Source of the DNA: Desulfobulbus propionicus
GTDB taxonomy: Bacteria > Desulfobacterota > Dissulfuribacteria > Dissulfuribacterales > DYLC01
Assembly: GCA_020722285.1 (NCBI GenBank)
Contig: DYLC01000003.1
Location: 1-39,930 of the forward strand
Direction: 5' to 3'
DNA: 39,930 nucleotides
Shown: positions 87-38,137 of the stretch, piece by piece
Layout: every line of letters starts with the position of its first letter
Position numbering within the stretch: the stretch's first letter is position 1
The notes under the pieces: model-generated
What the model was told of the DNA's origin: nothing
The model's database searches: none
What the model saw: only the letters and a program-made list of their open reading frames with translations
Program-made: the position numbers and the translations under genes

Positions 87-147
87 GAATTAGCGGTGCT
101 ATCCTGTTAAACATAAACCATAAAAAATGAAAAAGGAGAACTCAACC

Positions 148-1773
148 ATGTTTTGCTTCCAATGTGAACAGACAGCTAAAGGCAAGGGATGCTCTGTACT
201 CGGAGTATGTGGAAAAGATGCCAGAACAGCAGCATTACAGGATTTACTTATTTATGCAGTGAAAGGGCTTTCCTTTGTTGCAGTTGAGGGCAGAAAGGCG
301 GGGGTAGTTGACAGGGCAGTAAATGTCTTTACCTGTGAGGCGGTATTCTCAACCCTTACAAACGTAAACTTTGACCCGGAGCGTCTTGCCGGTCTTGTCA
401 AAAAATGTGTGGAGCTCAGAGACAGCCTCAAGGCCAAGGTGGAAAAGGCCGGTGGAAAGGTCAACTTCTGTGAAGGACCCGCCACATTCACGCCTGCTGC
501 CTCCATCGAGGACATGGTAAAGCAGGGCGAAGAACATGGTGTCATGTCCAACGAAACTGACCCTGACATCCGAAGCCTTCAGGAAACATTGGTATATGGA
601 CTCAAGGGCGTATGCGCTTATGCTGACCACGCCCAGATACTCGGACAGGAAGATGATAAGGTCTATGCCTTTGTGCACGAAGGGCTTGCAGCTACCTTGG
701 ACAAAGGACTGAAACTGGAAGACTGGGTAGGCCTGGTCTTGAAGTGCGGCGAGATCAACCTGCGCGCCATGGAGCTTCTGGATGCAGGCAACACTTCGAC
801 ATACGGCCATCCTGTTCCGACCACTGTGCCTCTCGGGCACAAGGCAGGCAAGGCCATACTCGTTTCAGGCCATGATCTGAAAGACCTGGAGGAAATCCTG
901 AAGCAGACAGAGGGTAAGGGCATTAATGTCTATACCCACGGTGAGATGCTGCCATGCCATGGCTATCCAACCCTCAAAAAATACCCGCACTTTTATGGAC
1001 ATTACGGTACTGCATGGCAGAATCAGCACAAGGAGTTTCCGGAATTTCCAGGCCCTATTGTGATGACCACAAACTGTATCCAGAAGCCTGCTGAAAGCTA
1101 CAAGGCCAGCATCTTTACAAGCGGCATAGTAGCATGGCCAGGGGTGACTCATATCAAAAATCGTGATTTCAGCCCGGTGATCAACAAGGCCCTGGAGATG
1201 ACAGGCTTTACATCTGATGAAGACAAGGGAAGCGTCATGGTGGGTTTTGCCAGAAACACTGTCATGTCAGTGGCTGACAAGGTCATCGAGGCCGTTAAAT
1301 CAGGGGCGATCAGGCACTTTTTCTTGGTGGCTGGCTGCGATGGCGCAAAACCAGGCCGTAATTACTATACAGAACTTGTGGAAAAGATCCCCAAGGATTG
1401 TGTGGTGTTGACGCTTGCCTGTGGAAAATTCCGCTTCTTTGACAAACAGCTTGGTGATATCGGCGGCATTCCAAGGCTTCTGGACATCGGCCAGTGCAAT
1501 GACGCCTACTCGGCCATACAGATTGCCGTCGCCCTTTCGAAGGCGTTCAATTGCAGCGTGAATGACCTGCCTCTTTCCTTGATCCTTTCCTGGTACGAAC
1601 AGAAGGCAGTGGCAATTCTTCTGACATTGTTTCACCTTGGCATCAAAAACATCAGGCTTGGCCCGAGTCTTCCGGCCTTCATCACCCCTAATGTTCTGGA
1701 TGTGCTGGTGAAAACCTACAACATCAAGCCCATTTCCACGCCGGACCAGGATTTGAAAGAAATTCTTGGATAA
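148..1773 (+). CDS. hcp: hydroxylamine reductase / hybrid cluster protein, class I
   Basis: Hybrid cluster (prismane) protein of 541 residues, a cytoplasmic iron-sulfur enzyme that reduces hydroxylamine and NO in vitro and is linked to nitrosative and oxidative stress defence. The N-terminal cysteines C3, C6, C15 and C21 are spaced CX2CX8CX5C, the class I pattern of strict anaerobes that binds a cubane cluster. Motifs expected around the hybrid cluster are present (THGEMLPCHGYP, NCIQKP, GCDGAKPGRNYYTE). The start at 148 is preferred over the in-frame ATG at 127 because AAGGAG at 133-138 sits 9 nt before it and homologs begin MFCFQCEQT. An HcpR-like operator lies upstream. A small zinc-ribbon gene follows 82 nt downstream. 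Confidence 0.96.
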   Translation: MFCFQCEQTAKGKGCSVLGVCGKDARTAALQDLLIYAVKGLSFVAVEGRKAGVVDRAVNVFTCEAVFSTLTNVNFDPERLAGLVKKCVELRDSLKAKVEKAGGKVNFCEGPATFTPAASIEDMVKQGEEHGVMSNETDPDIRSLQETLVYGLKGVCAYADHAQILGQEDDKVYAFVHEGLAATLDKGLKLEDWVGLVLKCGEINLRAMELLDAGNTSTYGHPVPTTVPLGHKAGKAILVSGHDLKDLEEILKQTEGKGINVYTHGEMLPCHGYPTLKKYPHFYGHYGTAWQNQHKEFPEFPGPIVMTTNCIQKPAESYKASIFTSGIVAWPGVTHIKNRDFSPVINKALEMTGFTSDEDKGSVMVGFARNTVMSVADKVIEAVKSGAIRHFFLVAGCDGAKPGRNYYTELVEKIPKDCVVLTLACGKFRFFDKQLGDIGGIPRLLDIGQCNDAYSAIQIAVALSKAFNCSVNDLPLSLILSWYEQKAVAILLTLFHLGIKNIRLGPSLPAFITPNVLDVLVKTYNIKPISTPDQDLKEILG

Positions 1774-19776: not shown

Positions 19777-20133
19777 TTACTTATGGCACTCAGCACACTT
19801 GGTTGGGCCAGCCTTCTTCTGTTCATGGCAACCTTTGCAGTTCTTGTGCATATTGTCAGCGGGCTTTCCAAGCTCATGACAGGTAGCACATTTCTCGATC
19901 TTCTGGCCAGCAACATAGGCTACCTGCTTGCCATCAGCACCCTTGCTGTGATGGCACTCTCCACATGTTGTCTTTCCCTGGTGAGCCTTGTGATTAAAGG
20001 CTACAGGGGCCTTTTTGCCGGCTGGTCCAGCAAGGCTGATGGTATCAGGACCTTCTGCTGACACGAGAGATGCAGCCCCAACAAGACCAAATGCACATGC
20101 AGCTACAAGAGAAACTTTAATTGACTTCTTCAT
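19777..20133 (-). CDS. periplasmic tetraheme cytochrome c (c3/c7 type)
   Basis: An exported cytochrome of 118 residues with signal peptide (about 1-26, VSA-E cleavage) and about 92 mature residues. Four CxxCH sites (C57-H61, C82-H86, C99-H103, C113-H117) bind four hemes. Exactly four further histidines (48, 51, 62, 96) are available as distal ligands, so all hemes can be bis-histidine, as in low-potential class III cytochromes. Classical c3 uses some CX4CH sites and Geobacter-type c7 has three hemes, so this compact all-CxxCH form is intermediate. ATG 20133 has GGGAGG about 8 nt before it. It is a single-gene unit with its own promoter and terminator. Probable role: periplasmic electron carrier. 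Confidence 0.92.
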   Translation of the reverse strand: MKKSIKVSLVAACAFGLVGAASLVSAEGPDTISLAGPAGKKAPVAFNHKAHQGKTTCGECHHSKGADGKQVAYVAGQKIEKCATCHELGKPADNMHKNCKGCHEQKKAGPTKCAECHK

Positions 20134-20174
20134 TGACAAACCTCCCTTTTACGGATTTTTTTAATGCACGTCTC

Positions 20175-21094: not shown

Positions 21095-23752
21095 TTACCC
21101 CCCTACTTCTTGAAGGATGCGCATGCCTTCCTCTATGCGTTTAAGTCTCATCATCAGACCATCTGCCTTTTCCCGTTCCTTCTGAACCACTTCTTCCTTT
21201 GCCTTTTGAAGAAAACCGGGGTTGGCAAGCTTGGCATTCAGCTTTTCAAGCTCAGGGATCAATTTAGACTGCTCTTTTTTCAACTTTCCAAGCTCAGCCT
21301 CTACATTTATTATCCCTGCAAGCGGAACATGCACATCTATCTGATCCAGTACCACAGACATCACGCCAGAAGGTCGTTTGGCTGTGGCGTCAAGAAACTC
21401 CACTTGCTCTACCCTCGCAAGGTTTTGAAGGGCTTTCAGCTCATCCTCCACAATCCTGCGGGCAAATTCCGTATGAGCCACGACAATAATCTGTATGCCG
21501 ACAGCAGGATGCACATTCATCTCAGCCCTGATATTTCTGATGCCAGTGATGATCTCGATAAGAAGCCCTACAGATGTCTCTGCATCGTCATCCTGCCAGT
21601 CCTTGCAGGGCTTTGGATAGTCCTGCACACAGATAAAACCCTGTCTGCCAGGAAGATGATGCCACAACTCCTCTGTAACAAAAGGCATAAAGGGATGCAG
21701 AAGCCGTAAACTGTAATCCAGCACAAGAAGACTTACTGCCTGGGTCACAGTTTTTTCCGCAGAATCCTTGCTGTAAAAACCCTGTTTGGCAAACTCAAGA
21801 TACCAATCGCAGAACTCGCGCCAGAAAAACCCGTAAAGCTCACGGGCAGCCACGTCAAAATCAAACCTGTCCAAGGCAGATCGAATCTCTGAAACAGCCC
21901 TGTCAAGCCTTGCAAGTATCCACCTGTCTCGAAGGGTCAGACGACTGTAATCAATCTCTGGCGCAGCGCCATCAAGATTCATCAGAACAAGCCTTGAGGC
22001 ATTCCAGATCTTGTTCACGAAGTGCCTGTATCCATCAATCCTGTCCTCTGCAAGTTTTATATCTCTTCCATGGGCTGCAAGAGCTGCCAGGGTAAAACGC
22101 ACGGCATCAGTGCCATATTTTTCCATTACCACCAAGGGGTCAATAACATTTCCCTTGGACTTGCTCATTTTATGACCCTGGGCATCCCTTACAAGGGCAT
22201 GAAGATATACATACCTAAATGGCACATCCTTCATGAAGTGAATACCCATCATCATCATGCGCGCTACCCAGAAGAACAAAATATCAAAACTGGTGATCAG
22301 TACAGAGGTAGGATAAAAACGCTTCAGATCATCAGTCTGCTCCGGCCATCCAAGGGTTGAAAACGGCCAAAGCGCTGAACTGAACCATGTATCCAGCACG
22401 TCATGTTCCTGTTCGAGCCTGCTCCCTGCGCATTTACTGCAAACCTTTGGCTCTTCACGGGCAACCATCACCTCTCCACAATCAAGACAGTTCCATGCAG
22501 GAATTCTATGTCCCCACCATATCTGTCTGGAAATACACCAGTCCCGTATGTTGGTAAGCCACTCCTCATAGGTTCTGAACCAGGAATCAGGAAGAATATT
22601 AGTGCGTCCGTCCCTGACTGCCTCAAGGGCCTTTTTCGCCAGAGGGGCAGTGTGTACAAACCATTGTTTTGACACCCTTGGCTCAACAACTGTTCTGCAC
22701 CTGTAGCAACATCCCATTGCCAGACTGTGAGGGTCTTCCGCCTCAAGAAGACCAAGCGTCTGCAGGTCTTCAAGCACAGCCTTTCTCGCCTCATATCTGT
22801 CAAGCCCGGCATATTTGCCGCCATTTTCGTTTACCCTGGCATTAACATCAAAAATGTTGACAGATGCCAGATTATGACGTCTTGCAATCTCGAAGTCATT
22901 GAAATCATGGGCAGGAGTAACCTTTACAGCGCCAGTTCCAAACTCAACATCAACCGCATCATCCGCCACAACCGGTATCTCTCTGTTTACCAAAGGCAGA
23001 ATGAGATTTCTGCCAATCAGATGTCTGTAACGCTCGTCTGAAGGATTGACAGCAACACCAGTATCACCAAGCATGGTTTCTGGCCTGGTAGTTGCCACAA
23101 CCACATAAGAACTGTCTCCAGAAACAGGATACTTGATTCTCCAGATACTTCCAGTTACAGGCTCATGTTCCACCTCAATATCGGCAAGGGCTGTGTGGCA
23201 CCGCGGACACCAGTTGATGATATAGTCGCCCTTGTAAATAAGCCCTTCCTCATACAACCTGACAAAAACCTCTCTGACTGCCTTTGAAAGCCCTTCGTCC
23301 ATGGTGAAACGCTCGCGTGACCAGTCGCATGACGCCCCAAGCCTTTTAAGCTGATGAATTATCCTGCCGCCGGACTCCTTTTTCCACTGCCACACCCTTT
23401 CAATAAATGCATCCCGCCCAAGTGCATCCCGATGTGTGCCTTCGGCCTTTAACTGTCTTTCCACCACATTCTGGGTGGCAATGCCGGCATGGTCTGTACC
23501 AGGCATCCAGAGGGTATTGTAGCCATCCATTCTTTTGTATCTTACAAGCACATCCTGAAGCGTATTGTTCAGGGCATGGCCTATGTGCAAAACGCCTGTG
23601 ACATTAGGCGGTGGAATCACAACGGAAAAATCAGGGCTATTCTCTCTGTGGGTTGCCTTAAAAACCTCTGCATCAAGCCATGCCTTATACCAGCGAGTTT
23701 CCACATCCGAAAACTCATAGGCCTTGGCAATCTGACTGCCTGTCTCATTCAT
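21095..23752 (-). CDS. valS: valyl-tRNA synthetase
   Basis: Charges tRNA-Val, 885 residues, full length for the bacterial enzyme. The HIGH motif is at 56-59 (PPPNVTGVLHIGHALN) and KMSKSKGNV marks the second signature loop in the C-terminal half of the catalytic core. The editing domain (about 190-330), the anticodon-binding region and the C-terminal coiled-coil arm (from about 810, LGKLKKEQSKLIPELEKL) are all present. The ATG overlaps the thrC stop in the arrangement ATGA, indicating translational coupling. Confidence 0.98.
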   Translation of the reverse strand: MNETGSQIAKAYEFSDVETRWYKAWLDAEVFKATHRENSPDFSVVIPPPNVTGVLHIGHALNNTLQDVLVRYKRMDGYNTLWMPGTDHAGIATQNVVERQLKAEGTHRDALGRDAFIERVWQWKKESGGRIIHQLKRLGASCDWSRERFTMDEGLSKAVREVFVRLYEEGLIYKGDYIINWCPRCHTALADIEVEHEPVTGSIWRIKYPVSGDSSYVVVATTRPETMLGDTGVAVNPSDERYRHLIGRNLILPLVNREIPVVADDAVDVEFGTGAVKVTPAHDFNDFEIARRHNLASVNIFDVNARVNENGGKYAGLDRYEARKAVLEDLQTLGLLEAEDPHSLAMGCCYRCRTVVEPRVSKQWFVHTAPLAKKALEAVRDGRTNILPDSWFRTYEEWLTNIRDWCISRQIWWGHRIPAWNCLDCGEVMVAREEPKVCSKCAGSRLEQEHDVLDTWFSSALWPFSTLGWPEQTDDLKRFYPTSVLITSFDILFFWVARMMMMGIHFMKDVPFRYVYLHALVRDAQGHKMSKSKGNVIDPLVVMEKYGTDAVRFTLAALAAHGRDIKLAEDRIDGYRHFVNKIWNASRLVLMNLDGAAPEIDYSRLTLRDRWILARLDRAVSEIRSALDRFDFDVAARELYGFFWREFCDWYLEFAKQGFYSKDSAEKTVTQAVSLLVLDYSLRLLHPFMPFVTEELWHHLPGRQGFICVQDYPKPCKDWQDDDAETSVGLLIEIITGIRNIRAEMNVHPAVGIQIIVVAHTEFARRIVEDELKALQNLARVEQVEFLDATAKRPSGVMSVVLDQIDVHVPLAGIINVEAELGKLKKEQSKLIPELEKLNAKLANPGFLQKAKEEVVQKEREKADGLMMRLKRIEEGMRILQEVGG

Positions 23753-25164
23753 GCAATACTCCTTTCACCTTTCCCTATTTCCCTGGAGACGATCAACTTT
23801 ATTTCATTCACATCTGCCTGGCTTACAACCAGCTTCTGCGGCATCCCTTCAAGCTTTTTGATACTCACTGGAACAGGAGGCAAAGCGCTGATAGCATCCT
23901 GAACAGTCTCAGGGAACTTGGCAGGATGGGCAGTTGCAAGACATATGATCTCACCCCCCGTCAACCTTTCATAAAGCTTTTGTGCGGCGGCAAATCCTAC
24001 AGCAGTATGCGGATCCAGCAAATAACCATATTTTATATATGTGCTTTTAATTGTTTCAGAGGTAAGCCCCCTGTCCACGGAAACAGATTCAAACTCCTCC
24101 CGCGTCTTTCTGAGTTGCTCAGGAGTCACCTCAATATCAACCCCTCTATCAAATGCCTCCATTTTTTCCCTGACCTTCTGGCTGTCCTTATCAAAAAGAT
24201 AATAGAGATATCTCTCGAAATTGCTCGCTACCTGAATATCCATTGATGGGCTTGTCGTGGACTTTACTGACCTGCTCCTGACATATCGGCCTTCCTGTAT
24301 AAAACGTGTCAGAATATCGTTTTCATTGGTTGCAAGAACCAGCCTGCCAATACGGCTGCCTATCATGTTACGGGCTATAAAACCTGCAAAAATATCACCG
24401 AAGTTACCTGTTGGCACGGAAAAATACACTTTTTCTGTATGATCCATCAACTTCAAAAATGCATATACATAATAAACCACCTGCGCCAGCACACGAGCCC
24501 AGTTGATGGAATTTACGGCTGCAAGGTTATGACTTTTTCTGAACTCAAGATCATTGAAGATCGTCTTTACAATAGCCTGACAATCATCAAATGTGCCCTC
24601 AACAGCTATGTTAACCACATTCTCATCTGTAACTGTTGTCATTTGCAGTTCTTGCACATGACTCACCCGTTTGTGAGGATGCAGGATAAAAATCGAGATA
24701 TTCGGTCTGCCCCTGACACCATGAATAGCAGCGCTTCCAGTATCTCCGGACGTAGCGCCGATGATCTTAATACGCTCCCCTCTTTCCTTCAAAATATATG
24801 CAAAAAAATTACCCAGAAGCTGAAGTGCAATGTCTTTGAATGCAAGAGTAGGCCCATGAAACAGCTCAAGCACCCACATATCTCCTACCCTCACAAGTGG
24901 TGTTATGTCCGGATGAGTGAAGCGGCTGTAAGCATCATCAATCATAACCTTGAGTTCCTGGCGGGAAATGTCATCTATAAAAAGAGACATGACTTCAAGG
25001 GCAACTTGCTGATAAGTCATTTTTTTCCAGCCAAGCAAAGTGTCTTCAGAAAGACTGGGGATACTCTCAGACACCAGAAGGCCGCCATCTGTGGCAAGCC
25101 CCATCAAAACTGCTTCCTTAAACGATATGGGAGAAATACCTCCCCTTGTGCTTATGTATTGCAT
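23749..25164 (-). CDS. thrC: threonine synthase
   Basis: PLP enzyme converting O-phosphohomoserine to threonine, 471 residues, the longer type found in proteobacteria and yeast. The N-terminal YISTRGG is family-typical, K110 in GPTLAFKDIALQ binds PLP, and GATSGDTGSAAIHG and VPTGNFGDIFAG bind phosphate. The ATG lies 1 nt after the bd-type subunit stop, and the stop overlaps the valS start. It draws on the same aspartate-semialdehyde family as the DUF39 homocysteine protein at 30054-31253. Confidence 0.97.
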   Translation of the reverse strand: MQYISTRGGISPISFKEAVLMGLATDGGLLVSESIPSLSEDTLLGWKKMTYQQVALEVMSLFIDDISRQELKVMIDDAYSRFTHPDITPLVRVGDMWVLELFHGPTLAFKDIALQLLGNFFAYILKERGERIKIIGATSGDTGSAAIHGVRGRPNISIFILHPHKRVSHVQELQMTTVTDENVVNIAVEGTFDDCQAIVKTIFNDLEFRKSHNLAAVNSINWARVLAQVVYYVYAFLKLMDHTEKVYFSVPTGNFGDIFAGFIARNMIGSRIGRLVLATNENDILTRFIQEGRYVRSRSVKSTTSPSMDIQVASNFERYLYYLFDKDSQKVREKMEAFDRGVDIEVTPEQLRKTREEFESVSVDRGLTSETIKSTYIKYGYLLDPHTAVGFAAAQKLYERLTGGEIICLATAHPAKFPETVQDAISALPPVPVSIKKLEGMPQKLVVSQADVNEIKLIVSREIGKGERSIA

Positions 25165-25165
25165 A

Positions 25166-26374
25166 CTAAAACAATGTCCCGTTTTTAAGTGATATTATGA
25201 TTCCAAGCCCTGCCACAAGTACAAACCAGAGGACAGGAAGCGCCGCAGCAAGACGCCCTAAGCCATGAGGATGATTTTTGTCAGAACCGTTTCGCGCAAG
25301 ATTCACAGCAACCAAAACCGGATAGGCCATAACAACAAGCCCTCCTATAAATGTCCCGAAGAAAAGAACAGCGCTGCCCCAATCAACGGCAAGCTTATAG
25401 TCAAAAATACTGTAACCAACCTTTGCAACATAGACCATTCTTAATGCTTCACGTGCATAAGACATCAAAAATACCGTAACCAAGACGCCAATGGCACATT
25501 TTATGGCATTTTCTGATGGATCCTTCTGGCTTGTCATCAAAAGTCCCAAAAGACCAAGCCCTGCGCCTGCCCCAAGCAACAGAAATGGATTGGACAAAAA
25601 GAATAAGTCATGAGGCAATGTTAAAAGCCACCAGAAACCGACCACCACCTGAGCAACAGTGAAATAAAGGGCAAGTTTTGCCCCCAGTTCACCCACAAAT
25701 CTGAGATACGAAGGCTGGTAATCCTTTCTTTCCTTAAAAAACCAGGCATACAGCATAAGATAGACACCTGTCACAGCAAAAGAAGGGACAATAAAATGCA
25801 GTAACCTGGCAGGTTCAATGAGATACAGCCCTTTGCCATGAGTAATGACTGAATCGCCAGCTACAATCCAATCCTTCCATTTTTGCGGATAAAGCTGCTC
25901 CACAGACAGGCCATGAATGATGAAGGCCGAAACCAGAAGTCCAGCCAGAGAAAGCGCTGCCCAGACTGGATTTGAGCCCTTCTCCTTGTCCTTTTTAAGG
26001 TAAAAAATATAGGCGCATGTAAATGCCACGGCAATAGCCAGCAAAAAACCAAGCGCCCAATAGGCTGACATGGTATTGGCAGTGTACCAGAATGGATCAT
26101 AAATCACCTGAACAAAGAGAAGCGGGGCAACCCCAAGCACCATTGCCACAGATACGCCAACAGTATTTGAACGGGCCAGCGCAGCGCTCAACCTCAAAGA
26201 CTCCGCAGTTCCCTTAAGCCTCATCCAGAGAGCCAAGAAGGACCCACCAACAACGATGTTAACCACAAGGATATGAAGACAAAAGGTCAACACCATTAAC
26301 ACCTGAAAAACAATGGGATAAAAAGGCACACCTGCAGGGTCCCGCATCATGCTGAGATATTGACTAAGTTCCAT
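25166..26374 (-). CDS. cytochrome bd-superfamily oxidase, second CydA-like subunit
   Basis: An integral membrane protein of 402 residues with about nine to ten helices. It is the partner of the heme c-containing subunit upstream (14 nt gap). It looks like a CydA paralog, not a CydB: H34 in FCLHILVVNIVVGG corresponds to the N-terminal heme histidine, and H193 in ARLLHFIVPSFAVTGVYLM corresponds to the region holding the heme b558 histidine of E. coli CydA. A classical quinol-binding Q-loop is not apparent. A complex of two CydA-like chains recalls archaeal CydAA' and the non-quinol families of the superfamily. The alignment was made by eye. Conventional annotation might call it cydB. Confidence 0.75.
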   Translation of the reverse strand: MELSQYLSMMRDPAGVPFYPIVFQVLMVLTFCLHILVVNIVVGGSFLALWMRLKGTAESLRLSAALARSNTVGVSVAMVLGVAPLLFVQVIYDPFWYTANTMSAYWALGFLLAIAVAFTCAYIFYLKKDKEKGSNPVWAALSLAGLLVSAFIIHGLSVEQLYPQKWKDWIVAGDSVITHGKGLYLIEPARLLHFIVPSFAVTGVYLMLYAWFFKERKDYQPSYLRFVGELGAKLALYFTVAQVVVGFWWLLTLPHDLFFLSNPFLLLGAGAGLGLLGLLMTSQKDPSENAIKCAIGVLVTVFLMSYAREALRMVYVAKVGYSIFDYKLAVDWGSAVLFFGTFIGGLVVMAYPVLVAVNLARNGSDKNHPHGLGRLAAALPVLWFVLVAGLGIIISLKNGTLF

Positions 26375-26388
26375 TTAGCACCTCCTCG

Positions 26389-27711
26389 CTACTTGCAAAT
26401 TGAAGCAAGCCAGGCCGCGGCTGCCTGCTTGTCATCGTCTGTGCCTGCAAATGGTGGCATATAGGCATAGCCTTCAAGCGCATCCAGAAACACTGCAATA
26501 TCTTCCTCTGCTGTCATGCCAATTCGATCCAAAAACACAGGCAAAGAACGAAGCCTTGCATTTTTCTCAAAGGAATGACAATTGCCACACTGATGCAGGG
26601 CTATCATCCTGCCTGCTGCCAGCCTGCCTGCATCTGAAGATTTTTTTGCCTCATCCGGCAAAAAATACAGACTTGAGAGAAATCCGTTTTCTTTCATTGA
26701 AGCCAGCTCCGCCTTTATCCCCTTACCAGGAACATCAGAGGCGACAATCTGGTTTCCATACATATATCCATTTATTATATAGGGCCTCCTGACTCCCTCC
26801 CTGAACCCTTCTGTTGCAAAAATACCTGCAAAAAGCACTGCTATCATCAAAATGCCGCTGTATGTGCCAGGCACCTTTGGAACGCTGATGCCAAGCAGAA
26901 AATACAGAAAAACTGCCCCAAAACCACCGGCAGCCACATACAACAGATGTTTCAAGTAAGGAAGTCCAGCGCCTAAACCAAGGTCTTTTGCAGCTTGAGG
27001 CATCTTTACCACAAACCATACAGACATCAGAACAGTAAGCAACGTCCCTATAGCGCCCCACACAGAGGCAAGCCTGACTATGGCCTCGCGAGTCTCCGGT
27101 TTTTCCAGCCTGCCGGCAGCGATTATTGCATACATACCTGCAATCCCGCACATCAGAGCCGTGCGTAAAAAAAGCTGAGGCCAGTATGTATCATTAAAAA
27201 AACCGTCAAAAAAGCCGCCTGTCACAAGCCACTTGCCACCTGAAAGCATGAACGCCAGGATACCGGTGATAATAATCATACTTATCCATGCCGCCCATGC
27301 ATATATCCAGCCTATGCGCAAATGCGCTTTAACATCAATTTTTCCAAGCGTATAATAGTAGACATAAATCGCCACTATTTCGATGACAAAAAAGACCCAC
27401 TCAGTGGCCCAGCCCCAGACATAATTATGTATGAGGGAAGAAAGAGAACGGGGGCTTGCAATGGTAGCGGAAAACCATATTCCAACCCCGGTAATTGAGC
27501 CATAAACAAAGCAGAAAATCAGGATAAGCAGTGTATATTTTCGGATAAACTCCAGAAAATCAGGACGATTTTCCTTCAACGCCTTTTGCTCAATGAATAC
27601 ATTGAACCAGAATGCCCCTGTGGCAAGATGGCTTGGCAAAATGTGAAAACTTGCAATCAGCGCGATAAAAAGGGCTGAAGTAAACCCTGGCACTTCCCAA
27701 AAAGGATACAT
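26389..27711 (-). CDS. cytochrome bd-superfamily oxidase, subunit I with C-terminal heme c domain
   Basis: A membrane oxidase subunit of 440 residues related to CydA. H23 in [13 protein letters not shown] aligns with the E. coli CydA H19 ligand, and [10 protein letters not shown] and [11 protein letters not shown] (E104, E111) match conserved core helices. After the last helix (about 283-300) a soluble domain of about 140 residues carries CGNCH (375-379) and M418 in YMPPFAG, the ligands of a Met/His cytochrome c. The positions of E. coli H186 and M393 seem to be R183 and a non-Met residue, and there is no Q-loop, so a c-type cytochrome or other donor is more likely than quinol. GGGAGG precedes ATG 27711. 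It heads the run oxidase-thrC-valS-nadC. Confidence 0.82.
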
Positions 27712-27790: not shown

Positions 27791-27982
27791 TCAAGGCAGC
27801 GGCTCCAGGATAATCTTTCTGGCTATCATGTCTATTTTAATAATCCTGGCTGAAAGCCTCTTATGCTCACCAAAAAATCCTTTGACTGACACCCCGTTGT
27901 CATCTGGCTCCACAGAAATCACATCCTTGAGGATTTCAACCTCATCACTGCCGCTCTTTATCACCACACTGGTTTGACACAT
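27791..27982 (-). CDS. cooT: CooT-like nickel-binding protein
   Basis: A 63-residue protein with the CooT pattern: start MCQTSVVIKSG, DVISVEPDDNGVSVKGFFGE in the middle, and a final IDMIARKIILEPLP. In Rhodospirillum rubrum CooT is a nickel-binding dimer tied to carbon monoxide dehydrogenase maturation, with Cys2 as a ligand; Cys2 is present here. No CO dehydrogenase gene lies in the window, so the client enzyme is unknown. GAGGAGGT is an ideal ribosome binding site directly before ATG 27982. It is 79 nt upstream of the oxidase genes on the same strand. Confidence 0.8.
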   Translation of the reverse strand: MCQTSVVIKSGSDEVEILKDVISVEPDDNGVSVKGFFGEHKRLSARIIKIDMIARKIILEPLP

Positions 27983-36017: not shown

Positions 36018-36956
36018 TTAGTCCATCTCAGACAACTTGACAATGCGATCATACTCCTCATCAACACGCTTCTGGATATAGGCTAATTGCTCTTCCTTAA
36101 GGTGTTTGAAACGACGCTGGGTTTTTAAATAATCTGTAACAGGCTTTGGCTTGTTGATCTTGCGGCTAAGGATGTACTTGCCTTCAATAACTTCATAAAG
36201 AGGCACCACCCTTGTCTCCACCACAAGCCTTGCAATCTCAATAGACTTCTCACCAGGGCTTCCCCAGCCTGTAGGACATGGAGAATAGATGTGGACATAG
36301 GCAGGACCTTTTACAAGGGCAGCCTTTTTGACCTTGTTCATAAGATCAACATAATAGGCAGGAGAAGCTGTGGCGACATAAGGAATGCCGTGAGCAGCCA
36401 TGATAGCAGGAACATTCTTTTTCCAGGTTACCTGGCCGAAACTCTCCTTGCCTGGAGGAGTTGTAGTGGTCATTGCGCCGTAAGGCGTACATCCTGACCT
36501 CTGCACACCGGTGTTCATATACGCCTCATTGTCAAGGCAGATATAAACCATATCATGGCCTCTTTCAAAAGCGCCTGATATCCACTGAATGCCGATATCA
36601 CCTGTTGCGCCATCGCCTCCTACTGCTACAATATCTATATGCTTTTTGGGTATTTTACCCTTTCTGGCCAACACCTTTCTGGCAGCCTCGATACCTGATG
36701 CGACAGTCGCGGCATTTTCAAAAGCAACGTGCAACCAAGGCACTGTCCACGCTGTCTGTGGAAATGGTGATGTTACAATCTCCATACAGCCTGTGGCGTT
36801 GGCTACTATGATATCCTTGCCAAGGGCCTTCATTGCCATGCGAAGGGCAAGCATCTCTCCACACCCCTGACAGGCCCTGTGACCTGGGGCAACTATCTCA
36901 TCTTTTGGCAAGGTTTTTGCTGAAAAACCTTTAAATTTTTCGAATTCTGGTATCAT
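36018..36956 (-). CDS. porB: pyruvate:ferredoxin oxidoreductase, beta subunit
   Basis: TPP-binding subunit of the four-subunit enzyme that interconverts pyruvate and acetyl-CoA plus CO2 with ferredoxin; 312 residues. The N-terminal [11 protein letters not shown] supplies cluster cysteines and NATGCMEIV follows. The TPP/Mg segment is [19 protein letters not shown] with [26 protein letters not shown] is typical of PorB. Its ATG overlaps the porA stop (ATGA). Last gene of porGDAB, followed by a terminator. Confidence 0.95.
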
Positions 36957-38137
36957 TTCTCGCGCACTCCTATGACTTCATAGAGATCTGTCGGCCTTTT
37001 CTTGGCGTACAGGTTGGCTTTATCAACTATTTCCCTGAAGGTATCCACAGTCACATCTCTTCCACCAAGGCCAGCCACAAAACCAAATATCTTTGGCGCT
37101 CTCCCCGGCATCTTGTAAAGAATGGATCTAAGCTCAGCGCTAACAGGACCGCAACTCGCACCGGTTGATATTGTTCTGTCAATCACAGCCAGTGTTTTGA
37201 CTGTCTTTCCGATGGCCTTCCTAAACTCAGGCCCAGGGAAAGGCCTCCAAAGCCTGATGCGGAGCAGCCCAACCTTCTGCCCTTCATCCCTCATGGCGTC
37301 TATGGCTGTCATGGCTGTCTCTGAGATACTGCCCATTGTCACAAGCACGGTCTCCGCATCATCCATCCTGTATGTCTCGATTGGATTATACTGACGGCCA
37401 AATTTGCCGGCAAACTCCTTCCAACCCTGAATGATCACCTTTTTTGATGCCCTGAGAGCCATCTCGTGCGCAACCTTTGCCTCAGTATAAACTTCTGGTA
37501 TGCCAACAGGGCCCATGGTGACAGGCTTTTTAGGATCCAGCTTTACATGTGGCTTGAAAGAAGGGATATAGGCATCCACATCCTCCTGATCTGGCAGGAT
37601 AATCGGCTCAATAACATGGCTTAATGTAAAACCGTCTATATTAACAATAAAAGGCAGGGAGACCTTTGGATCTTCAGCGACTCGGTAGGCATGAAGAAGC
37701 AGGTCCACCGCCTCCTGGCCATTCTCCGCAAAGGTCTGTATCCAGCCGATATCGCGCTGAACCATGATATCATTATGATCATTCCAGATGCTGATCGGGG
37801 CTGCAAGCGCCCTGTTAGCCACAACCATCACCACAGGCAGCCTCATAGGTCCAGGATGATATAAAATCTCACTCATCAGAGAAAGACCCTGTGAACTTGA
37901 AGATGTAAACGTCCTTGCCCCTGCCGCAGATGCGCCTAAACAACAGCTCATAGCTGCGTGCTCTGACTCCACGGGCACATACTCTGCATCCAACTCACCA
38001 TTTGCAACGACATCAGAAAGATGCTCTACGATGTGAGTCTGAGGGGTGATCGGGTAGGCTGATATAACCTCAGCCCTTGCAAGTTTCACAGCATCAGCTA
38101 CTGCTATTGAAACCTCTACTCCAACGCGTTTAGACAT
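36953..38137 (-). CDS. porA: pyruvate:ferredoxin oxidoreductase, alpha subunit
   Basis: Substrate-side subunit of 394 residues. The start region [25 protein letters not shown] is the PorA signature; [20 protein letters not shown] and [18 protein letters not shown] follow, and [18 protein letters not shown] is characteristic of pyruvate-type enzymes. Related 2-ketoisovalerate and 2-oxoglutarate enzymes share the fold, but the overall pattern favours pyruvate. GAGGAGG precedes the ATG, 2 nt after the porD stop. Confidence 0.94.

What the first reader, a model, noticed from the sequence alone, without database searches (positions are those of the whole stretch)
25166..27711. bd-superfamily oxidase built from two CydA-like subunits with a fused heme c
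Subunit I keeps the N-terminal heme histidine (H23) but appears to lack the E. coli b558 ligands and the Q-loop, and adds a Met/His cytochrome c domain (CGNCH, M418). Subunit II resembles CydA too, with H34 and H193 in CydA-like contexts. This suggests a non-quinol bd-type enzyme fed by a c-type cytochrome, possibly the tetraheme cytochrome at 19777, in an otherwise anaerobic gene set.
Basis: partly seen in the sequence, partly recalled or inferred. Interest (0 to 1): 0.58.

Follow-up and report, generated by a model that had tools for sequence, protein, structure and literature searches.

The report
Cytochrome-c-fed bd-type oxygen reductase pair
Two neighbouring genes encode an unusual relative of the bacterial oxygen-consuming enzyme cytochrome bd that probably takes its electrons from small cytochrome c proteins instead of membrane quinols; in anaerobes it probably serves to remove oxygen, and no enzyme of this kind appears to have been purified yet.

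Summary
Subunit I (26389-27711, -) is a CydA relative that keeps the oxygen-site residues of E. coli CydA (H19, E99, E107, E445, R448 = H23, E104, E111, E305, R308). It lacks the b558 ligands and the Q-loop, and carries a C-terminal cytochrome c domain (CGNCH, M418). Subunit II (25166-26374, -) is also a CydA paralog, not CydB: H34 and H193 align exactly with H19 and H186. The two genes are co-inherited across several phyla and form separate, well-supported clades apart from CydA.

New here:
- H193 is conserved together with M304, and both are lost together in Thermus and Methylosinus, suggesting a His/Met haem b in subunit II.
- The last helix of subunit II is a separate ~35-aa, CydX-like gene in at least 11 relatives.
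- Several relatives sit inside oxygen-defence islands; seven lie near Rieske/cytochrome b genes.

The host also has canonical cydAB and no detected haem-copper oxidase. The class itself is already described: cytochrome-c-using bd families OR-C/OR-N (Murali 2021). I file it as a probable OR-C-like member with new anatomical detail. The link to the tetraheme cytochrome at 19777 is not supported. Activity and donor are inferred.

The parts
26389..27711 (-). Subunit I: CydA-like oxygen-site subunit with C-terminal haem c domain (440 aa)
   Evidence: Pfam PF01654 and PF13442; profile match to CydA, E 1.3e-10; AlphaFold pLDDT 90.7, nearest solved folds CydA
27643..27645 (-). H23 of subunit I, equivalent of E. 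coli CydA H19 (haem ligand)
   Evidence: Aligned; invariant in 107 of 107 relatives
26797..26799 (-). E305 of subunit I, equivalent of E. coli CydA E445 (haem ligand)
   Evidence: Aligned; invariant in 107 of 107 relatives
26389..26634 (-). Haem c domain of subunit I (about residue 360 to the end), CGNCH at 375-379 and M418
   Evidence: PF13442; c6/bc1-type cytochrome c matches of the profile; CxxCH invariant
25166..26374 (-). Subunit II: CydA paralog (402 aa), not CydB
   Evidence: Profile match to CydA with H34=H19 and H193=H186, to subunit I E 4.6e-8; CydA folds; separate clade, SH-aLRT 99
25796..25798 (-). H193 of subunit II, equivalent of E. coli CydA H186; proposed axial ligand of a haem b
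   Evidence: Aligned; conserved and lost together with M304
25463..25465 (-). M304 of subunit II; proposed second axial ligand of the haem b
   Evidence: Conserved and lost together with H193; geometry not measured
25169..25282 (-). C-terminal helix of subunit II, a separate small single-helix gene in other genomes
   Evidence: Separate ORF of about 34-40 aa with own start in at least 11 relatives

Best explanation
The pair encodes a membrane cytochrome c:O2 oxidoreductase of the cytochrome bd superfamily (OR-C-like). Periplasmic cytochrome c gives electrons to the fused haem c of subunit I. They pass, directly or through a His/Met haem b in subunit II (H193/M304), to a two-haem oxygen site in subunit I (H23, E104, E111, E305, R308), which reduces O2 to water. 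Upstream, menaquinol probably reduces the cytochrome c through a Rieske/cytochrome b complex. In this anaerobe the main role is probably oxygen defence. Shown here: homology, residue conservation, pairing, neighbourhoods. Inferred: cofactors, donor, electron path, activity, role.
For: Oxygen-site residues of CydA invariant in subunit I while the b558 ligands and Q-loop are gone; haem c domain in 67 of 71 relatives by Pfam and CxxCH in all 107; subunit II is a CydA paralog; the two genes are co-inherited; oxygen-defence genes within 6 kb in eight relatives from three lineages, against one Fur hit in 400 kb of control DNA; Rieske and cytochrome b genes near the pair in seven relatives, with homologues in this genome.
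Against: No activity, cofactor or donor has been measured. Most relatives show no oxygen-defence neighbours. The window's own neighbours (CooT-like gene, thrC) say nothing about oxygen. The host also has canonical cydAB, so the pair is not its only candidate oxidase.
Confidence: 0.72

Rival explanations
1. It is still a quinol oxidase: quinol binds at a new site, for example near the haem b of subunit II, and the haem c is a side branch or relay.
For: H193 of subunit II sits where CydA holds b558, the haem that takes electrons from quinol. All characterised bd enzymes are quinol oxidases (PMC8509429).
Against: No Q-loop in subunit I, and only a 10-19 residue TM6-TM7 loop in subunit II. Thermus and Methylosinus members lack H193 and M304 but keep the haem c and the oxygen site.
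Confidence: 0.13
2. It is a bd-derived enzyme with another main reaction, such as NO or peroxide reduction, or a redox relay, not an O2 reductase.
For: Rrf2-family regulators lie near the pair in six loci (Pfam check of one), and that regulator family includes NO and iron-sulfur sensors (own knowledge). An extra invariant-like histidine, H28, is absent from CydA.
Against: All known oxygen-site residues are kept, and the richest neighbourhoods are O2 and peroxide defence, including a flavodiiron protein.
Confidence: 0.12
3. The tetraheme cytochrome c3-like protein at 19777-20139 is the dedicated donor, encoded in the same transcription unit.
For: Same strand, downstream, with thrC, a valyl-tRNA-synthetase-like gene and nadC closely spaced between.
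Against: No relative examined keeps it near the pair. The genome has several c3-like genes and two small monoheme-like c proteins elsewhere.
Confidence: 0.07

Closest known systems
OR-C family of cytochrome bd oxygen reductases (Murali, Gennis and Hemp 2021; known here only through papers citing it: PMC8509429, PMC10839748, PMC13189123)
   Same: bd-superfamily oxygen site; no quinol site; thought to use cytochrome c
   Different: I could not read the founding paper or run its profiles, so I cannot say whether the H193/M304 pair, the separate small helix or the oxygen-defence islands were described there
OR-N CydAA' of Nitrospira and Nitrospinota (PMC10839748, PMC12342949)
   Same: Two CydA paralogs proposed to form one enzyme; putative cytochrome c donor
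   Different: Found in aerobic nitrifiers as the main terminal oxidase; here mostly in anaerobes, with haem c fused to subunit I. Position relative to OR-N was not tested
Archaeal CydAA' (Caldivirga; own knowledge of Murali 2021)
   Same: Two CydA paralogs instead of CydA plus CydB
   Different: That enzyme oxidises quinol; this pair lacks the Q-loop and has a haem c
Canonical cytochrome bd, CydAB
   Same: Oxygen-site residues H19, E99, E107, E445, R448 and the fold
   Different: No CydB, no H186/M393 in subunit I, no Q-loop, one helix fewer in subunit I, haem c added
Deltaproteobacterial CydA-multihaem cytochrome c chimaeras without CydB (PMC5322542, 2015)
   Same: CydA fused to c-type haem, no CydB; set aside there as not proper bd oxidases
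   Different: The window protein has a single haem c. Long subunit I proteins with reversed gene order form a related group here (L198-L212)
CydX/CydS/CydH small subunits of bd oxidases
   Same: Single-helix protein of about 35 aa encoded with the oxidase
   Different: Fused to subunit II in the window; sequence homology not tested

Membership tests
Cytochrome bd superfamily | CydA-type haem ligands and oxygen-site residues (H19, E99, E107, E445, R448) | tested here: met
   H23, E305, R308 aligned by profile; E104 and E111 by motif; conserved in 107 relatives, E111 is D in Thermus only
Cytochrome bd superfamily | CydA-like membrane fold | tested here: met
   Best solved-structure matches of both subunits are CydA chains
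Canonical quinol-oxidising CydAB (qOR) | Q-loop / quinol site between TM6 and TM7 | tested here: not met
   Loop of 13-16 residues in all aligned relatives
Canonical quinol-oxidising CydAB (qOR) | b558 ligands H186 and M393 in subunit I | tested here: not met
   No His or Met at those positions in the profile alignment
Canonical quinol-oxidising CydAB (qOR) | Partner subunit is CydB | tested here: not met
   No PF02322 hit in 67 members; CydA matches better than CydB in profile and fold
OR-C (Murali 2021) | Oxygen site present, quinol site absent, cytochrome c features present | tested here: met
OR-C (Murali 2021) | Match to the published OR-C profile and position inside the OR-C clade | not testable with these tools
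   Profiles and reference tree not held; founding paper not held
OR-C (Murali 2021) | Cytochrome c as actual electron donor | not testable with these tools
   Needs the purified enzyme
OR-N CydAA' | Position inside the OR-N1/OR-N2 clades | not tested
   No labelled OR-N sequences were in the collections used
CydX/CydS-type small subunits | Small single-helix protein of about 35 aa encoded with the oxidase | tested here: met
   Separate in at least 11 relatives; fused to subunit II in the window
CydX/CydS-type small subunits | Sequence homology to CydX, CydS or CydH | not tested
   Likeness in size and position only

The most novel reading that the evidence does not exclude
A three-part, cytochrome-c-fed bd oxygen reductase built from two CydA paralogs and a fused or separate small helix. 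The paralogs split the work: subunit I holds the haem c and the two-haem oxygen site, subunit II holds a His/Met haem b (H193/M304). Used by anaerobes for oxygen defence, it would be the first bd enzyme shown not to use quinol.
Probability: 0.45. Interest if true: 0.65.

Novelty: new member of a known kind. Interest (0 to 1): 0.45.

Why it matters
As of 2021 all biochemically characterised bd oxidases were quinol oxidases, with a call to find one using another donor (PMC8509429). This pair points to concrete, widespread, often thermophilic candidates, including the cultured Thermosulfurimonas dismutans and Thermus thermophilus plasmids, and gives residue-level predictions that one purification could test. 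The relatives found on plasmids are annotated only as cytochromes or hypothetical proteins, and subunit II of the window matches no curated family, so the enzyme is probably overlooked in surveys of oxygen use by anaerobes.

Tried and rejected
Subunit II as CydB: rejected. E309 of subunit II as an E445-type haem ligand: rejected, because the position varies freely (E, D, Y, H, Q, R and others). Tetraheme c3 at 19777 as a conserved partner: rejected for lack of linkage. Bin contamination as the source of the pair: unlikely, because the order CooT - pair - thrC is shared with G007 of the same order and 25 of 46 genomes of the order have a match, nearly all of them the pair itself. Single-sequence searches of solved structures gave nothing useful, nor did the subunit II profile. 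Loop charge mildly favours N-outside for both subunits, but the conserved R304/R308 of subunit I blur it. The founding paper (Murali 2021) is not held. A search of Elusimicrobia-related genomes found only the one already known.

Full report
WHAT IS THERE. Two genes lie on the minus strand, 14 bp apart: subunit I (26389-27711, 440 aa) and subunit II (25166-26374, 402 aa). A CooT-like gene (27791-27982) precedes them and threonine synthase (23749-25164) follows. The host genome (1.69 Mb in 100 contigs, 90% complete, 0.08% contamination) has one copy of subunit I. On another contig it has canonical cydA and cydB. No haem-copper oxidase was detected.

SUBUNIT I. Pfam places residues 16-229 in Cyt_bd_oxida_I (E 6.5e-7, above cut-off) and 364-435 in a cytochrome c family just below cut-off; 70 and 67 of 71 relatives hit these two families. 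A profile of 71 relatives aligns with a CydA profile anchored on E. coli over the whole core: probability 96.9%, E 1.3e-10. H23 lands on H19, E305 on E445 and R308 on R448. E104 and E111 match E99 and E107 by motif, with a spacing of 7 instead of 8. At H186 and M393 there is no His or Met. The TM6-TM7 loop has 13-16 residues in every aligned relative, so the quinol loop is absent. In 107 relatives below 90% identity, H23, E104, R183, E301, R304, E305, R308, P310 and CxxCH are invariant; E111 is D only in Thermus, and M418 is missing only from two truncated ends. H28, five residues after the haem ligand, is conserved in 105 of 107 and has no counterpart in CydA; I have no explanation for it. 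AlphaFold (pLDDT 90.7) gives eight long helices, one fewer than CydA (nine; own knowledge), which would place the haem c domain outside. The nearest solved structures are CydA chains.

SUBUNIT II. It has no Pfam, NCBIfam or PDB sequence match. Its profile matches CydA (probability 88%, E 3.1e-6) with H34 on H19 and H193 on H186 exactly, and it matches subunit I (E 4.6e-8). The match to CydB is weaker (probability 40%) and aligns no ligands; CydA against CydB, as a control, gives 0.2%. None of 67 members hits the CydB family. Its best solved folds are CydA chains, for example TM-score 0.62 to 9r2g_A and 5doq_A against 0.54 to the CydB chain 5doq_B. In a tree of 73 sequences, subunit I, subunit II and CydA each form one group with SH-aLRT 99. 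CydB was left out of that tree because it cannot be aligned reliably.

PAIRING. In nearly all loci whose contig reaches far enough, a subunit II relative lies next to subunit I. Tree distances of the two correlate at r 0.95 over all and 0.82 within the close group (highest of 500 shuffles over all: 0.24). The subunit I profile matches 25 of 46 genomes of the order (nearly all are the pair, a few are weak CydA hits), and the subunit II profile matches 56 of 297 of the phylum. Close relatives come from Thermodesulfobacteriota, Nitrospirae and Elusimicrobia, distant ones from Holophagaceae, Methylomirabilis and Verrucomicrobia, and from Thermus, Methylosinus and Agrobacterium plasmids. On those plasmids subunit I is annotated 'cytochrome c' or 'c-type cytochrome', and subunit II 'hypothetical protein' or 'cytochrome C'.

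TWO NEW ANATOMICAL POINTS. (a) H193 and M304 of subunit II are both present in all non-redundant relatives except Thermus (A, V) and Methylosinus (F, L), which lose both while keeping H34, R308, E309 and R312. Joint loss is what a His/Met ligand pair would give. It may be one event or two (the branching is unresolved), and geometry was not measured, so this is an inference. (b) The last helix of subunit II (about 365-402) is a separate ORF of about 34-40 aa in at least 11 relatives, often with a Shine-Dalgarno-like AGGAG before its start. It resembles CydX/CydS small subunits in size and position; homology to them was not tested.

FUNCTIONAL CONTEXT. Genes for a Fur/PerR-like regulator, rubrerythrin, desulfoferrodoxin, ferritin, peroxiredoxin and flavodiiron protein (Pfam-checked in L072; rubrerythrin and flavodiiron also in L075) lie, in varying number, within 6 kb of the pair in L005, L045, L048, L052, L055, L056, L072 and L075; L025 has a peroxiredoxin alone. 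Twenty control stretches of 20 kb gave one Fur hit. L045-L072 are one related group, so I count three lineages. This clustering points to oxygen defence. Seven loci of one family have Rieske and cytochrome b genes about 4.4 kb away, and the window's genome has homologues of both. Small c-type proteins occur at G000:C92. A chain menaquinol -> Rieske/cytochrome b -> cytochrome c -> this enzyme is therefore possible, but not shown.

MECHANISM. Best reading (72%): cytochrome c reduces the fused haem c; electrons go, directly or via the subunit II haem b, to the two-haem site in subunit I, where O2 is reduced to water. Members lacking H193/M304 keep everything else, which suggests that the haem b is not strictly needed. 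Whether haem d or haem b fills the oxygen site cannot be told from sequence.

KNOWN OR NEW. Murali et al. 2021 divided the superfamily into qOR, OR-C and OR-N; only qOR keeps a quinol site, and the others are thought to use cytochrome c or another donor (as reported in PMC8509429, PMC10839748, PMC13189123). OR-N pairs of two CydA paralogs are proposed in Nitrospira and Nitrospinota. CydA-cytochrome c chimaeras without CydB were noted and set aside in 2015 (PMC5322542). The window pair fits this known kind, probably OR-C; formal placement could not be run. What I did not find in the papers I could read is the H193/M304 pair, the detachable small helix and the oxygen-defence islands; the founding paper may contain some of it.

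The donor suggestion is unsupported, and the kind is already described.

NOTE ON SUBMISSION.

Noticed in passing
window 27791-27982 (-): A CooT-family gene (PF10133, CO dehydrogenase accessory, 63 aa) lies directly upstream of the pair; the order CooT - pair - thrC recurs in L155 of the same order. Why is unknown.
   Followed up: partly
window 27643-27645 and residue H28 nearby (27628-27630), subunit I: H28, five residues after the haem ligand H23, is conserved in 105 of 107 relatives but absent from CydA; unexplained.
   Followed up: no
L198-L212 and L226-L234: A related group has the gene order subunit II then subunit I, often with subunit I in very long reading frames (up to about 880 aa).
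   Followed up: partly
L157:5247-6812 and L213, L235: Another group has subunit II fused to a C-terminal region with two CxxCH motifs, and lies next to further c-type cytochromes.
   Followed up: partly
L216:3320-4307 and L217:3207-4230 (offsets on the reverse strand): Short CydA-like proteins that lack the H19-type histidine but keep the positions aligned with H193 and M304; could be a further bd-related family.
   Followed up: no
G000:C98 (L271:2-4649): The host genome appears to carry a periplasmic nitrate reductase-like cluster (molybdopterin oxidoreductase, ferredoxin-type proteins, multihaem c), judged by sequence reading only.
   Followed up: no
window 127-1773 (+): Hybrid cluster (prismane) protein, PF03063 E 1.5e-177; with the pyruvate-synthase-like genes at 36018-38137 it fits an anaerobic gene set.
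   Followed up: partly
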